Assembly (NCBI RefSeq): GCF_900566075.1
Contig: NZ_UPHU01000001.1
Coordinates: forward strand, 3,162,001 to 3,226,000
Origin: Mycobacterium pseudokansasii
GTDB lineage: Bacteria; Actinomycetota; Actinomycetes; Mycobacteriales; Mycobacteriaceae
Direction: 5' to 3'
DNA length: 64,000 nt
Positions 9,251-57,699 of the stretch are shown piece after piece (within the stretch, counting starts at the first letter, position 1; every line of letters starts with the position of its first letter). A program made the position numbers and the translations under genes. The notes under the pieces were generated by a model. That model did no database searches. It worked only from the letters and a program-made list of their open reading frames with translations, and was not told the origin of the DNA.

Positions 9251-9260
9251 GCCCTTGCAT

Positions 9261-9430
9261 GCACCTCGCTAGGTGAGGCGTCTGCACGGATACAGGCCAC
9301 TGACCTCGAACGTCGAAAGACGCCCAGGGTCAGGACAGCTCTTCCCGGCTTAAGGGTTGAGCCCAAGTGGCTTCCGGCTTTGGCTAGCTGGATACGCCGT
9401 GTGGTGCCAAAGCTCTGACGAGAGGGGTGC
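9261..9430 (+). promoter_or_regulatory. M-box (ykoK) Mg2+ riboswitch aptamer
   Basis: The conserved M-box blocks occur in order: CTAGGTGAGGC, ACAGGCCACTGACC, AACGTCGAAAGACGCC, GGGTCA, GAGCCCAAGTGGC, GGATACGCCG and GTGCCAAAGCTCTGACGA. The closing helix pairs GCACCTCG (9261-9268) with CGA (9419-9421) and GGTGC (9426-9430). The 170-nt length is typical. The M-box folds on Mg2+ and shuts off downstream genes when Mg2+ is plentiful. In M. tuberculosis an M-box precedes PE20-PPE31 and the genes through mgtC. The same order follows here, with PE20 broken. Confidence 0.9.
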
Positions 9431-9433
9431 CGC

Positions 9434-9513
9434 GCCCAGTTGTTCACTGGGCTCTCACCCCGGGTGCAGTCTGCCTGGCATCCCCGCGTGCCCTGGCCCT
9501 GAGGAGGTGAGAG
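9434..9513 (+). promoter_or_regulatory. hairpins between M-box and leader ORF (possible expression platform)
   Basis: GCCCAGT (9434-9440) and ACTGGGC (9446-9452) form a perfect 7-bp hairpin. CTCTCACC (9452-9459) is complementary to GGTGAGAG (9506-9513), part of the ribosome site of the leader ORF at 9518, so that site can be sequestered. No U-tract follows either structure, which favours translational or Rho-dependent control over an intrinsic terminator. The switching mechanism is inferred. Confidence 0.5.
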
Positions 9514-9517
9514 CGAG

Positions 9518-9598
9518 ATGAGTCCCGGCGATAGTCCGTATCCGAGTCCGACGAGCATTTCGTTCCGATCCGACCTCGGCGCCCTTTTCGCAATCTAA
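9518..9598 (+). CDS. 26-codon proline-rich leader ORF downstream of the M-box
   Basis: GAGGAGG (9501-9507) lies 10 bases before ATG 9518; the frame ends with TAA at 9596-9598. The peptide starts MSPGDSPYPSP, with prolines at positions 3, 7, 9 and 11 and an Asp at 5. That composition recalls the acidic/proline-rich MgtL leader peptide of enterobacterial mgtA, where Mg2+-poor ribosomes stall or drop off. The ribosome site can pair with CTCTCACC upstream. I infer a cis-acting leader peptide that couples ribosome behaviour to downstream expression. No protein function is expected. Confidence 0.55.
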   Translation: MSPGDSPYPSPTSISFRSDLGALFAI

Positions 9599-9709: not shown

Positions 9710-10002
9710 ATGTCGTTTGCGATCACCCGTGCAGCTGTGCTGTCTACGACCCCCGGGCCGTGCCAAGCGAACACCGCACCCGCAACGAGCAACCGCCCAT
9801 TGCCCTGCAGCGGACAAATACTGCAAGCGACGAATCAGACCGGACCACAACACAATTCAGTGCCCGCGTCCGGAGCTGGCGGTGGCGTCACAGTGCGGGC
9901 GGCCCATCGATCACCTACCGCGACTTCGGGTACCGGCGCCGGCTTAGGTGCGGCCACCGGCGCCGCCAGCACTATCCCAGCCGATGAGAAAAGAGGCCAG
10001 CG
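9710..10002 (+). pseudogene. PE20-like gene, frameshifted
   Basis: It starts MSFAITRAAVLS, matching the PE opening MSFVIT-PEVLA, behind ribosome site AGGAGAAG. The start frame does not keep the PE pattern. At 9823 the +2 frame (ASDESDRTTTQFSAR) matches the PE segment ADEVSALTATQFSAHAQ, so at least one frameshift lies between about 9750 and 9823. The start frame stays open through the PPE start but encodes low-complexity sequence. The position, directly before a PPE31-like gene and after the M-box, identifies it as the decayed counterpart of PE20 (Rv1806). Confidence 0.65.
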
Positions 10003-11208
10003 ATGACCGTCGCCCTGGACTTTGCCATGCTGCCGCCCGAAATCAATTCCGCTCGCATGTATTCGGGACCCGGCTCAGGCCCGATGCTTGCCGCGGCGGC
10101 GGCCTGGAATAGCCTGGCCGCGGAATTACGTGCGACGGCACTGTCCTATCACTCGGTGCTCGCGGCGCTCACCGGCGAAGAATGGTACGGTCCTGCATCG
10201 GCATCGATGGCAGCCGCCGCCGCGCCCTACGTCGCGTGGCTGAGCGCTACCGCTGTTCAGGCAGAACAGACCGCGATACAGGCGGAGGCCGCCGCGGGAG
10301 CCTACGAAGCCGCCTTCGCCGCGACCGTCCCTCCGCCGGTGATTGCGGCCAACCGTACCCAGCTGATGGCGCTGATCGCCACAAACATCCTCGGCCAGAA
10401 CACCCCTGCCATCGCGGCCACCGAGGCCCAGTACAGCGAAATGTGGGCCCAAGACGCCATGGCGATGTACGGCTACGCCGGATCCTCGGCTGCCGCCACA
10501 CAGCTGAGCCCGTTCGTCGAGCCTCAGCAGTCAACCAACTCCAGCGGGCTGGCCGCCCAGGCGGCTGCGGTCACCGAGGCCGCCGGCACCTCCGCCGGCA
10601 GTCAGCCGAGCACGCTGTCCGGGCTGATTTCCATGGTTCCTAGTGCATTGCAAGGACTTTCGGGACCTACCAGCACATCCTGGCTACAGGTGATTTGGGA
10701 CCTGCTGACCGGGTCTGGACCTGCTTGGTGGCAGACCTTGTGGAACGTCTGGGGACCCAACGCGAATGTCTGGAACACCATCAGTTCGACCGGGCTCTTC
10801 GTCCCGGGAAGCACGTTTGGACCCTTCATGGCCAGCCTGCTGGGCGGCGCAGTGGCCGCCGATGCGGCTCAGGATGCGAGTGTGGCCGCGGCTGGAGCTG
10901 GCAACGCGCTGGCGGCGGGGCCGCTCGCGTCCACCGGTGGCTTGGGAAATGCGGTCTCGGCCGCTTTGGGCAACTCGGGGATTGTCGGCAAGCTGTCGGT
11001 GCCGCCGGCGTGGACCGCCGCCTCGCCACTGCACAACCCGCTGGGTTCGGCATTGGGCGGCACGCCGATGGTTGCGCCTCCGCCGGCGGTGGCGGCGGGT
11101 ATGCCCGGTATGCCGTTCGGCAACATGGCCGGTCATCCCTTCGGACGGGCTGTGCCCCAGTACGGCTTCCGTCCCACCTTCGTCGCGCGACCGCCCGCGG
11201 CGGGCTAG
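10003..11208 (+). CDS. PPE31: PPE31-like PPE-SVP protein
   Basis: 401 residues from ATG 10003 (ribosome site AAGAGGCC). MTVALDFAMLPPEINSARMY opens the PPE domain, followed by GEEWYGPASASM, TAVQAEQTAIQAEAAAGAYE and [17 protein letters not shown]. The SVP signature GKLSVPPAWTAA is near residue 328. The C-terminus (SALGGTPMVAPPPAVAAG, then MPGMPFGNMAG, ending YGFRPTFVARPPAAG) matches M. tuberculosis PPE31 strikingly as I remember it. PPE31 pairs with PE20, is exported by ESX-5 and has been linked to Mg2+ acquisition. Here the PE20 neighbour is a pseudogene, so another PE partner would be needed. Probably controlled by the M-box upstream. Confidence 0.92.
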   Translation: MTVALDFAMLPPEINSARMYSGPGSGPMLAAAAAWNSLAAELRATALSYHSVLAALTGEEWYGPASASMAAAAAPYVAWLSATAVQAEQTAIQAEAAAGAYEAAFAATVPPPVIAANRTQLMALIATNILGQNTPAIAATEAQYSEMWAQDAMAMYGYAGSSAAATQLSPFVEPQQSTNSSGLAAQAAAVTEAAGTSAGSQPSTLSGLISMVPSALQGLSGPTSTSWLQVIWDLLTGSGPAWWQTLWNVWGPNANVWNTISSTGLFVPGSTFGPFMASLLGGAVAADAAQDASVAAAGAGNALAAGPLASTGGLGNAVSAALGNSGIVGKLSVPPAWTAASPLHNPLGSALGGTPMVAPPPAVAAGMPGMPFGNMAGHPFGRAVPQYGFRPTFVARPPAAG

Positions 11209-37284: not shown

Positions 37285-37530
37285 AACTGGGTTCCGCATC
37301 GCTCTCGCGCGGGAGAGTTTCGTGGCCGCCAGCTACGGACGCCGAAGGAGCAACACCTCTCCGTCAACCTCTCAGGCACCCGGACCGCGCCGGACAACGA
37401 TGCCTCTGGAAAGCGGTGACGACCCACGGGGGTCCTCACCCGCCGATGGGGAAAGGCGCCCGCAGCCATGGCGCCGAATCTCTCAGGCGCCTGGTGCACG
37501 GGTGAAGACAGAGGGAGAGGGCCGCTAGTC
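37285..37530 (+). promoter_or_regulatory. tandem glycine riboswitch upstream of gcvP
   Basis: Two gcvT-type aptamers in series. Aptamer 1 has CGCGGGAGAG (37307), ACGCCGAAGGAGCAA (37340) and CCTCTCAGGCA (37369). Aptamer 2 has GCCTCTGGAAAG (about 37411), CGCCGATGGGGAAAGG (37441), ATCTCTCAGGCGCC (about 37477) and GACAGAGGGAGAGG at the end. Glycine binding normally turns on glycine cleavage genes. It ends about 20 bases before the gcvP GTG. No classical terminator is seen, so control may be translational. Confidence 0.93.
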
Positions 37531-54828: not shown

Positions 54829-55202
54829 CCGGCCCCTCTGTGACTGCCCGATCGATCTCGGGCCGCGGAATCGCCGTCAGCGTGCGGGGCGTCGCTGTTG
54901 GCGTAGGCCCGGCTGAACACCATGTACAGGATGCCGAGACTGATGATCACCCCCGACATCAGCAGCACGACGTAGTTGTCGTACCAGGGCGCCTCGGGTG
55001 TCCGCGGCCAGCACACGTTGGCAATCGCCGCGACGCCATAGACCAGGGCGCCGATGTTGACGGGCATTCCCCAGCGGCCCAGCCGGTACTTGCCGGACGG
55101 CGCCCAGCCCTTCAGTCTGGCGCGCAGGGCCGCCAGCACGACCATCTGGAACCCGAGGTAGACCGATTTAGTGTGCCGGCGCGCCACATTTCCCGCACTC
55201 AC
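54829..55202 (-). pseudogene. C-terminal fragment of an APC-family amino acid permease
   Basis: On the minus strand, about 110 codons read like the last part of an APC permease: YLGFQMVVLAALRARLKGWA, SGKYRLGRWGMPVNIGALVY, a helix GVAAIANVCW, a PEAPWYDN loop, and a last helix YVVLLMSGVIISLGILYMVF. The first ten or so helices are missing. Sequence upstream of 55202 on that strand has no permease character, and no proper stop closes the fragment. It is a 5'-truncated relic between Rv1847 and ureA, where M. tuberculosis has no permease. Confidence 0.65.
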
Positions 55203-55367
55203 CGTCTTGTCGCTCTCCGGGTACGGCTCGTCCGGGCGGCCCTTTCGGCGCGCCGCACTTCACCGTACCTACCCGGCCGGCCGCCGCGACGGACTTCAAG
55301 CTGAAAGACAGCTGTGAATGTGGCTCCCCCGCGCACCACGGCTGGGCCCATGGCAGGATCGGAGGCC
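55203..55367. other. region upstream of ureA
   Basis: 165 bases that should contain the urease operon promoter. I see no clear -35/-10 pair. An in-frame ATG at 55350 would extend UreA by six residues. Confidence 0.4.
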
Positions 55368-55981: not shown

Positions 55982-57699
55982 TGCGGTTGACCCGGGAGCG
56001 CTACGCGCAACTGTACGGTCCTACCACCGGTGACCGGATCAGACTGGCCGACACCGATGTACTGGTCGAAATCAGCGAAGACCGCTGCGGTGGGCCGGAA
56101 CTGGCCGGCGACGAGGCAGTGTTCGGTGGCGGCAAGGTCTTACGCGAGTCGATGGGTCAGGGGCGCGCGACCCGGGCCGAGGGCGCGCCCGACACCATCA
56201 TCACCGGTGCAGTGATTATCGACTATTGGGGAATCATCAAGGCCGACATCGGGATTCGTGACGGCCGCGTCGTCGCGATCGGCAAGGCAGGCAATCCCGA
56301 CACCATGTCGGGTGTCCATCCGGATCTGGTCGTCGGACCCTCCACCGAGGTCATCGGCGGCAACGGACGCATCCTTACCGCCGGCGCCATCGACTGCCAC
56401 GTGCACTTGATCTGCCCGCAGCTGATACCCGTAGCGCTCGGCGCCGGCATCACCACCATCATCGGCGGCGGAACCGGGCCGGCCGAAGGCACCAAGGCCA
56501 CTACCGTCACCCCCGGAGCATGGCATTTGGCCCGGATGCTGGAATCACTGGATTCGTGGCCGGTGAACTTTGCCCTGCTCGGCAAGGGAAACACCGTCAG
56601 CCACGAGGGGTTGTGGGAGCAATTGCGTGGGGGCGCATCGGGTTTCAAATTGCACGAGGACTGGGGATCCACACCCGCGGCCATCGACACCTGCCTAACC
56701 GTTGCCGATGCCGCCGGGGTTCAGGTGGCGCTGCACACCGACACCCTCAACGAGATGGGATTCGTCGAAAACACCATTGCCGCCATAGCCGGCCGTTCGA
56801 TCCACACGTACCACACCGAGGGCGCCGGTGGCGGCCACGCACCCGACATCATGAGAGTGGCCGGGCAGCCAAATGTGCTGCCCAGTTCCACCAATCCGAC
56901 TCGTCCGCACACGGTGAACACGCTCGACGAGCATCTGGACATGCTGATGGTCTGTCATCACCTCAACCCCTCGGTACCCGAAGATCTGGCCTTTGCCGAA
57001 AGCCGGATCCGCCCGTCCACCATGGCCGCCGAAGATCTGCTCCACGACATGGGGGCGATCTCGATGATCGGCAGTGACTCCCAGGCCATGGGCCGCATCG
57101 GCGAGGTGGTGCTGCGCACCTGGCAGACCGCCCACGTGATGAAGCGCCGTCGGGGCGCGCTACCCGGCGATGGCCCGGCCGACAACAACCGGGCACGTCG
57201 CTACGTCGCCAAATACACCATCTGTCCGGCCGTCGCACACGGCATGGATCACGAGGTCGGCTCGATCGAGGTGGGCAAGCTCGCCGACCTGGTGCTATGG
57301 GAGCCCGCATTTTTCGGGGTTCGCCCGGACCTGGTACTCAAGGGCGGCGCGATCGCCTGGGCCGCGATGGGTGACGCCAACGCCTCGATACCGACGCCGC
57401 AACCGGTGCTGCCCCGACCGATGTTCGGTGCCGCCCCGGCTGCGGCGACGGCAACTTCCGTGCACTTCGTGGCGCCGGCATCGATCGATGCGGGATTGGC
57501 CGATCGACTCGCCGTCAACCGGCGGCTGGTTCCGGTGGCCGATGTCCGCGCCGTCGGCAAGACCGACTTGCCCCTCAACGACGCGCTGCCCAGCATCGAA
57601 ATCGATCCCGACACCTTCACCGTACGTATCGACGGGCAGGTGTGGCAGGAGCAGCCGGCCACGGAACTTCCCATGGCGCAACGGTATTTCTTATTCTAG
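55978..57699 (+). CDS. ureC: urease subunit alpha (nickel active site)
   Basis: 573 residues from ATG 55978; a second ATG follows at once. The bi-nickel centre is complete: HVHLICP (two His), carbamylated Lys224 in GFKLHEDWG, His in ALHTDTLNE, His in [15 protein letters not shown], Asp in [10 protein letters not shown]. The mobile flap His is in [30 protein letters not shown] is slightly shorter than in M. tuberculosis. It ends MAQRYFLF. Confidence 0.97.

What the first reader, a model, noticed from the sequence alone, without database searches (positions are those of the whole stretch)
9261..9598. M-box Mg2+ riboswitch followed by a proline-rich leader ORF whose ribosome site can be sequestered
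The aptamer is complete by motif. Downstream, CTCTCACC (9452-9459) can pair with GGTGAGAG (9506-9513), part of the ribosome site of a 26-codon ORF. The ORF begins MSPGDSPYPSP. An Mg2+ aptamer plus an acidic/proline-rich peptide resembles the two-layer control of enterobacterial mgtA (aptamer plus MgtL). Having both layers ahead of PE/PPE and mgtC genes suggests that ribosome stalling and Mg2+ binding are combined.
Basis: partly seen in the sequence, partly recalled or inferred. Interest (0 to 1): 0.78.

Follow-up and report, generated by a model that had tools for sequence, protein, structure and literature searches.

The report
Magnesium riboswitch controlling a tiny ORF
A magnesium-sensing RNA switch in a Mycobacterium kansasii-like genome controls a 26-residue reading frame; the switch is already published for the tuberculosis bacterium, but similar tiny frames follow such switches in other actinobacteria and mostly keep one rare serine codon, which hints that how they are translated matters.

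Summary
Window 9258-9433 is a full M-box (RF00380, 145.5 bits, cut-off 44). CTCTCACC 9452-9459 and GGTGAGAG 9506-9513 are complementary; a 26-codon ORF runs 9518-9598. This is the orthologue of the M. tuberculosis pe20 M-box/uORF2 (Rv1805A), published in 2026 as a translational M-box with Rho-dependent termination (PMC12810186). The core finding is already known.

Three results go further. (1) Masking the aptamer-borne SD1 lowers predicted SD2 accessibility from 0.45 to 0.25 over 143 Mycobacterium leaders (shuffled linkers 0.38 to 0.34); a hairpin 5' of SD2 covaries. (2) The ORF is not specific to mycobacteria: M-boxes of Streptomycetaceae, Micrococcaceae and other genera carry one. (3) The core serine is AGT in 121 of 121 Mycobacterium rows with Ser there: no synonymous change on the tree, against 23 and 22 in the neighbouring codons. 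Early AGTs are in frame 426 times, out of frame 10.

The MgtL-like acidic/proline reading is mostly unsupported: acidic pairs in 13 of 135 peptides, PP in 2. A cis-acting leader with paced translation fits better; the pausing step is inferred.

The parts
9258..9433 (+). M-box (ykoK-type) Mg2+ riboswitch aptamer, RF00380
   Evidence: 145.5 bits, complete model
9420..9429 (+). SD1 / anti-anti-SD (GAGAGGGGTG): 3' strand of the aptamer's closing helix, can alternatively pair with the anti-SD
   Evidence: RF00380 structure line; fold of 9419-9465, z -2.03; SD1 as described in PMC12810186
9427..9510 (+). uORF1 (GTG start; its TGA overlaps SD2 in this genome); reading frame not kept across relatives
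   Evidence: read; the GTG is in frame with the SD2 TGA in 44 of 124 leaders, near the chance level of one third
9434..9452 (+). hairpin GCCCAG/CTGGGC between SD1 and the anti-SD
9452..9461 (+). anti-SD (CTCTCACCCC), pairs either with SD1 or with SD2
   Evidence: accessibility test over 143 leaders
9477..9492 (+). hairpin GGCAT/GTGCC directly upstream of SD2, covarying in relatives
   Evidence: 98.2% of cells paired, 18 cells with both-side changes against 5.6 in shuffles, 45 sequences
9502..9513 (+). SD2 (AGGAGG 9502-9507) and adjoining GGTGAGAG 9506-9513, the sequestrable ribosome site of uORF2
   Evidence: each base of AGGAGG 98-100% identical in 128 leaders
9518..9598 (+). uORF2, 26 codons, MSPGDSPYPSPTSISFRSDLGALFAI; orthologue of Rv1805A
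   Evidence: present in 145 of 150 Mycobacterium M-box loci (139 by rule, 6 by hand)
9521..9523 (+). uORF2 codon 2, AGT (Ser)
   Evidence: AGT in 122 of 140 distinct uORF2
9533..9535 (+). uORF2 codon 6, AGT (Ser), the core codon
   Evidence: AGT in 121 of 121 rows with Ser there (of 128), 0 synonymous changes on the aptamer tree
9710..10006 (+). ORF of 98 aa after uORF2, no Pfam family; stands where some relatives have PE-like ORFs
10003..11208 (+). PPE gene
   Evidence: PF00823
12369..13655 (+). PPE gene
   Evidence: PF00823
13743..15158 (+). PPE gene
   Evidence: PF00823
15395..15718 (+). DUF732 protein gene
   Evidence: PF05305
15961..16689 (+). mgtC
   Evidence: PF02308 and PF21770

Best explanation
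It is a translational M-box switch whose first regulated ORF is a cis-acting leader. At high Mg2+ the aptamer closes its terminal helix and so hides SD1. The anti-SD is then free to pair with SD2, uORF2 is not translated, and the untranslated transcript is open to Rho before the PPE-mgtC genes. At low Mg2+ that helix opens, SD1 takes up the anti-SD and uORF2 is translated. The RBS-masking steps were tested by others for the tuberculosis orthologue; here they are supported by comparison.

The inferred part is that uORF2 serves mainly through the act of its translation. Its first about 10 codons are chosen for rare or wobble-read codons (AGT, TAT, CGA/AGA) and pace the first ribosome at about codon 6. 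That would keep the RBS region open or time the ribosome relative to RNA polymerase and Rho. The peptide itself is secondary.
For: Switch: masking SD1 lowers the mean predicted SD2 accessibility from 0.45 to 0.25 in 143 leaders (shuffled linkers 0.38 to 0.34); in 51 of 143 no more than 2 of 40 shuffles reach the observed change. The two alternative folds of the window match the model. The hairpin before SD2 covaries. Reporter, Term-seq and Rho-depletion data are in PMC12810186.

Translation of uORF2 under selection: uORF2 with SD2 in 145 of 150 Mycobacterium M-box loci (139 by rule; 6 by hand), and an SD-led short ORF in 41 of 46 further actinobacterial M-box loci.

Codon-level constraint: AGT makes up 310 of 482 Ser codons in uORF2 codons 2-12 (128 ORFs). 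Controls: 2 of 61 in codons 2-12 and 24 of 606 in codons 13-200 of 116 next ORFs, and 3 of 382 in uORF2 codons 13 onward. TAT:TAC is 104:2 against 51:193, CGA+AGA 73 of 81 Arg against 56 of 736, while Pro codons look ordinary. On a tree of aptamers the core Ser has 0 synonymous changes, its neighbours 23 and 22. AGT in the first 15 codons lies in frame 71 against 4 (other actinobacteria) and 355 against 6 (Mycobacterium); in next ORFs 4 in frame against 59.

Downstream genes vary (PPE, mgtC, Nramp and others) while M-box and uORF mostly stay together.
Against: No pausing data exist. In the paper the main Term-seq end lies upstream of uORF2, and the authors note that termination there may not depend on uORF2 translation. 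uORF2-lacZ was strongly expressed. N-terminal residues are conserved as well as the codon, which a pure act-of-translation role does not need. An M-box-free homologue (Rv0115A) exists in M. tuberculosis (paper). In this one window the pairing is not beyond shuffles. The codon bias is not uniform: early Asn is AAT:AAC 5:12, and CGA stays frequent in later uORF2 codons (84 of 182 Arg). Rut-like spacing over uORF2 is found in 120 of 128 loci but also in 79% of composition-matched shuffles, so it is no evidence. Five of 46 non-Mycobacterium M-boxes had no SD-led short ORF by the rule, and 3 of 41 had no AGT in codons 2-13. Leifsonia also lacks in-frame AGT.
Confidence: 0.48

Rival explanations
1. 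uORF2 encodes a trans-acting small protein (Rv1805A family) that modulates or joins the PE20-PPE31 Mg2+ uptake complex, as the 2026 paper proposes; the riboswitch simply turns it on.
For: Conserved N-terminal residues, e.g. Pro after the core Ser in 121 of 140 distinct uORF2; strong expression and an M-box-free homologue in M. tuberculosis (PMC12810186).
Against: Such ORFs follow M-boxes where the next gene is not PE/PPE: Nramp in Arthrobacter, mgtC in Tsukamurella, and others. The C-terminal part and length vary (21-34 aa). The silent position of the core Ser is fixed, which protein function does not explain. In the paper, adding rv1805A or rv0115A made no visible difference to biofilms.
Confidence: 0.22
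2. MgtL-like second layer: low Mg2+ makes ribosomes destabilise on an acidic/proline-rich N-terminus, combining ribosome Mg2+ sensing with the aptamer.
For: 126 of 135 peptides have an acidic residue in residues 2-8. Leaders of genera g21 (3 loci) and g23 (5 loci) begin MDDPPS or MDEPPS. Salmonella mgtQ and E. coli mgtL give the precedent.
Against: An acidic pair adjacent or one apart is present in 13 of 135, PP in 2 of 135 (residues 2-12), and usually there are 2 prolines. uORF2-lacZ is well expressed. In MgtL, leader translation represses the transporter, whereas here the RBS switch implies that translation goes with expression.
Confidence: 0.12
3. The fixed AGT is part of an RNA motif (AGUCC, with UAUCC and a later CGAUCC patch) bound by a protein or another RNA; the reading frame is incidental.
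For: Nucleotide-level conservation of AGTCC (90-98% per base in 128 leaders) and of a second patch, TCC in 66 of 67 Ser rows and CGA in 47 of 49 Arg rows. Of four leaders whose uORF2 has decayed, L140 keeps AGTCC and L131 keeps an AGT without the CC, although the ORF is lost.
Against: AGT in the first 15 codons is in frame 426 times against 10. The core Ser sits at codon 4, 5, 7, 8 or 9 in 14 of 128, i.e. moved by whole codons. Third positions of flanking codons change freely. The other two decayed leaders, L151 and L189, have lost the AGT.
Confidence: 0.14
4. Generic selection for A/T-rich codons and weak structure near a start codon.
For: T-ending codons for Asp and Tyr are favoured near the start.
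Against: Pro codons stay CCG/CCC in the same stretch. The next ORFs of the same loci show 2 AGT among 61 early Ser codons. GAT/GAC changes 23 times right beside a Ser codon that never changes.
Confidence: 0.1

Closest known systems
M. tuberculosis pe20 M-box / uORF2 (Rv1805A), PMC12810186 (RNA 2026)
   Same: Same aptamer family, same SD1 / anti-SD / SD2 layout, same uORF2 peptide family, and a downstream locus of PPE genes and mgtC; the paper's comparison included M. kansasii.
   Different: No PE recognised here directly after the leader. The paper calls the peptide specific for mycobacteria; here similar ORFs follow M-boxes in other Actinomycetes. The invariant AGT codon and the covarying hairpin before SD2 are not mentioned in the text that I read (parts 1-4 of 6; figures and supplements not seen).
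Bacillus subtilis ykoK M-box
   Same: Aptamer family RF00380.
   Different: ykoK uses an intrinsic terminator (stated in PMC12810186); here a translational platform.
Salmonella/E. coli mgtL, mgtP and mgtQ leader ORFs
   Same: Short ORFs in Mg2+ transport operons whose translation sets expression, with Rho or alternative hairpins.
   Different: mgtL and mgtQ rely on acidic residues and mgtP on proline; such pairs and runs are not kept here. No M-box aptamer is mentioned for them in the passages that I read.
B. subtilis sinR serine-codon sensor (PMC3862929, passages seen)
   Same: Identity of serine codons sets ribosome speed and so regulation.
   Different: There UCN codons slow ribosomes under serine starvation while AGC/AGU do not; here AGU itself is fixed and AGC is absent at the core Ser.

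Membership tests
M-box riboswitch (RF00380) | complete aptamer sequence and structure above the curated cut-off | tested here: met
   145.5 bits against 44, positions 1-169 of 169
M-box riboswitch (RF00380) | binds Mg2+ and switches | not testable with these tools
   needs in-line probing or reporters; leader-dependent Mg2+ control of the orthologue is cited in PMC12810186
Translational pe20-type M-box platform | anti-SD able to pair alternatively with aptamer SD1 or with SD2 | tested here: met
   clear over 143 leaders, not significant for the window alone
Translational pe20-type M-box platform | Rho-dependent termination in the leader | not testable with these tools
   rut-like pattern was uninformative
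uORF2 / Rv1805A family | SD2 AGGAGGTGAG, start about 10-12 nt after AGGAGG, N-terminus with D-S-P core, about 24-26 codons | tested here: met
MgtL-type ribosome-destabilising leader | two acidic residues adjacent or one apart (EPDP) at the N-terminus | tested here: not met
   window peptide has one acidic residue in residues 2-12; 13 of 135 peptides have a pair
MgtL-type ribosome-destabilising leader | translation of the leader represses the transporter gene | not testable with these tools
   needs reporters; the RBS switch argues for the opposite sign
Polyproline (EF-P) stalling leader | PP or PPX run in the nascent chain (recalled definition) | tested here: not met
   no PP in the window peptide; 2 of 135 in residues 2-12

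The most novel reading that the evidence does not exclude
Actinomycetes M-boxes as a class carry a second translation-based layer: a short leader ORF whose core is a nearly invariant, frame-locked Ser-AGU codon read by G-U wobble. The speed of that decoding, itself sensitive to Mg2+ or to charged tRNA-Ser(GCU), sets whether downstream metal transport genes are expressed. The aptamer and the ribosome would then act as two Mg2+ readers in series, with the ribosome reader based on a codon rather than on acidic or proline residues.
Probability: 0.25. Interest if true: 0.85.

Novelty: new variant of a known kind. Interest (0 to 1): 0.58.

Why it matters
The 2026 paper left the role of Rv1805A open. 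The comparison here shows that similar ORFs accompany M-boxes in several families of Actinomycetes with varied downstream genes, and that one silent position is fixed in Mycobacterium. This points away from a PE/PPE-specific small protein and towards an act-of-translation role that can be tested by one synonymous change in a harmless organism. If confirmed, it would extend two-layer Mg2+ control from enterobacteria to Actinomycetes with a new sensing principle. The switch itself is already published for its orthologue; 'new variant' refers to the codon-constrained leader.

Tried and rejected
MgtL-like acidic/proline stalling: tested by motif counts, mostly rejected. uORF1 as a conserved coupled leader: the frame is near chance level, 44 of 124. 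A rut site in uORF2: uORF2 is C-rich (C>G in 89% of 128 loci, median C/G 1.29), but next ORFs are partly so (67% of 116) and shuffles show the spacing pattern in 79%, so it was dropped as evidence. Pairing between the uORF2 core GTATCC and the aptamer GGATAC: considered by eye; the M-box of L001 in the same genome lacks GGATA, so it was not pursued. The hairpin before SD2 in Rv1535-type leaders: RNAalifold gave no consensus structure for 35 rows, although single sequences fold one; covariation is therefore claimed only for 45 pe20/Mn-type rows. These type labels are my own sorting by SD2 flank (45 rv1535, 36 pe20, 36 Mn, 11 other of 128; rows over 88% alike dropped, the 11 others left out), named after the paper's classes. 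The alignment of 62 mixed rows was not used for counts because the hairpin sits in two registers.

Literature: no paper on M-box leader ORFs outside mycobacteria, or on an AGU codon in them, was seen in the listings; one search matched 2,413 papers of which 10 were listed, and the held library lacks most subscription journals. Only listings were seen except for PMC12810186 (main text parts 1-4 of 6), PMC8092293 (outline and introduction), PMC11282234 and PMC3862929 (passages).

Changes made on checking: the decayed uORF2 copies are two with and two without AGT, not three of four without; the RNA-motif rival was raised from 0.12 to 0.14 and the best explanation lowered from 0.50 to 0.48 for that reason. 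The explanations are not exclusive, so their odds need not add to 1.

Full report
What is there. The window lies at C1:3162001-3226000 of a 6.43-Mb genome, G000, with three M-boxes. Its upstream neighbour gene is 99-100% identical to those of M. gastri, M. ostraviense, M. persicum, M. attenuatum and M. innocens, so it is a M. kansasii-like genome (the group name is recalled). Rfam finds RF00380 at 9258-9433 with 145.5 bits. The next ORF, 9710-10006, has no Pfam family; three PPE genes, DUF732 and MgtC follow.

What is already known. D'Halluin et al. (RNA 2026, PMC12810186; parts 1-4 of 6 read, i.e. abstract, introduction, results, discussion and methods; figures and supplements not seen) studied the M. 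tuberculosis orthologue. They report SD1 at the aptamer end, an anti-SD, SD2, a conserved uORF2 (Rv1805A) expressed more than 10 times more than pe20 in lacZ fusions, effects of deleting the anti-SD and of extending the leader, Rho-dependent early termination, and no visible biofilm effect of the peptide. They call it the first translational M-box and list M. kansasii among the species compared. The finding is thus already in print for its orthologue.

Test of the switch by comparison. RF00380 matches were found in 65 of 118 Mycobacterium genomes. I took 150 matches; the tool had more than it listed. A rule found uORF2 in 139; six more were added by hand after reading; four are decayed (L131, L140, L151, L189) and one lacks it (L221). 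In 143 of these 145 leaders (L132 and L193 could not be parsed), forbidding SD1 from pairing, as when the aptamer's closing helix is formed, reduced the mean unpaired probability of SD2 from 0.45 to 0.25. With dinucleotide-shuffled linkers it went from 0.38 to 0.34. In 51 of 143, no more than 2 of 40 shuffles reached the observed change. The window alone is unremarkable: 0.38 to 0.27, exceeded by several shuffles. The hairpin at 9477-9492 covaries in 45 pe20/Mn-type leaders: 98.2% of cells paired and 18 cells with both sides changed against 5.6 in shuffles, neither reached in 500 shuffles, with slid versions far lower; the number of pairs with a both-side change (3 against 1.8) and of further pair types (7 against 5.8) is not unusual, 83 and 86 of 500 shuffles. 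For 35 Rv1535-type leaders no consensus fold was found. In 50 of 80 named loci brought in by the neighbouring gene an M-box match was found by blastn, and 42 of these 50 gave a short ORF by the script's rule, among them M. leprae and M. lepromatosis with aptamers 77-80% identical.

The ORF is not limited to mycobacteria. I examined 46 further loci: 35 from other genera of the same family, 7 from other families of the class, and 4 named plasmid records, one of them Mycolicibacterium. A rule that ignores codon identity found an SD-led ORF of 10-60 codons in 41; of these, 38 have an in-frame AGT within codons 2-13. Misses: L259 and L276 have none; L297 has it at codon 15. The peptides differ widely: MSPGHSPRLSW, MDCSSSPGHH, MNDGHSPSTG, MDDPPSRYS, MPSGDSPYSRPG (GTG starts written as M). 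As a further check I read seven more named loci. Of five Actinomycetes, Embleya and two Streptomyces have an AGT-bearing ORF by rule and Pseudarthrobacter by hand, while Leifsonia has a short ORF without in-frame AGT. Of the two others, Aeromonas has no SD-led short ORF by the rule and Alicyclobacillus has one without AGT. An exact core pattern was also found in 24 of 401 family genomes and 4 of 31 genera, with no hit of the reversed control. This contradicts the paper's statement that the peptide is specific for mycobacteria.

A codon-level constraint. In 128 non-redundant Mycobacterium uORF2, AGT is 310 of 482 serine codons in codons 2-12. It is 3 of 382 later in the same ORFs, and 2 of 61 early and 24 of 606 later in 116 next ORFs. 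Tyr TAT:TAC is 104:2 against 51:193. Arg CGA plus AGA is 73 of 81 against 56 of 736; CGA also stays high later in uORF2 (84 of 182). Asn does not follow (AAT:AAC 5:12). Pro codon use is ordinary. Parsimony on a tree of aptamers (128 tips) gives 23 synonymous changes for the Asp before the core Ser, 0 for the core Ser (121 rows with Ser, all AGT), 22 for the Pro after it and 1 for the following Tyr. The tree is of short aptamers and so rough. AGT in the first 15 codons lies in frame 355 times against 6 in Mycobacterium (145 loci) and 71 against 4 elsewhere (41 loci); in next ORFs it is 4 in frame against 59. In 14 of 128 the core Ser sits at codon 4, 5, 7, 8 or 9 instead of 6. Bias to declare: the Mycobacterium ORFs were picked by a residue pattern that includes serine, not by serine codon, and the six hand additions were chosen by eye; the 46 other loci were scored by a rule without either. 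Rows are related, so the counts are not independent.

Reading. The switch is well supported. The codon pattern says that translation of the first ten or so codons, and not only the peptide, is under selection. The likeliest use is to pace the first ribosome, which could keep SD2 open or time the ribosome against RNA polymerase and Rho. This step is inferred. Against it stand the published Term-seq end upstream of uORF2, the high uORF2-lacZ expression and the conserved residues. Rho-site patterns were uninformative. That AGU is read by tRNA-Ser(GCU) through G-U wobble, and that TAT, CGA and AGA are slow or rare, is recalled knowledge; their relative rarity here is.

Verdict. Correct observation; core already published; the extension to other Actinomycetes and the frozen serine codon were not seen in print in the listings.

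Noticed in passing
window 37300-37521 +: Tandem glycine riboswitch (60.1 and 42.4 bits) before an ORF that reads like glycine dehydrogenase (name recalled; sequence seen).
   Followed up: no
window 55197-55254 -: Guanidine-III riboswitch match just above cut-off (40 bits, cut-off 36).
   Followed up: no
window 56140-56434 -: Match to the 5' ureB small RNA family (56 bits) with many non-standard pairs; perhaps a reflection of a urease gene there (not checked).
   Followed up: no
window 9710-10006 +: The ORF after uORF2 begins MSFAIT, somewhat like PE starts of relatives, but has no Pfam match; L187 and L188 diverge in it, so it may be a worn PE gene.
   Followed up: partly
L176, L223, L227: Three uORF2 copies have ATT where the start codon should be, with SD2 and the peptide frame kept.
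   Followed up: no
G064:C11:96031-103079 and G109:C1:4115026-4123667: Three M-boxes within about 7 and 8.6 kb on one strand; in each cluster the first in the direction of transcription has a decayed uORF2 (L151, L131).
   Followed up: no
G054:C1:4224750-4225513, G137:C12:304631-305222, G177:C50:34910-35483: Pairs of M-boxes on opposite strands, head to head, a few hundred bases apart.
   Followed up: no
window about 9563-9571 +: A second frozen patch in Mycobacterium uORF2: TCC in 66 of 67 Ser rows, then CGA in 47 of 49 Arg rows; meaning unknown.
   Followed up: partly
L021 12042-12206, L023 12035-12197: M. leprae and M. lepromatosis keep a uORF2-like peptide (MSPDDSPQ...) behind an aptamer only 77-80% identical to this one.
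   Followed up: no
window 9427-9510 +: uORF1 ends with its TGA inside SD2 in this genome, a possible coupling whose frame is not kept in relatives.
   Followed up: yes
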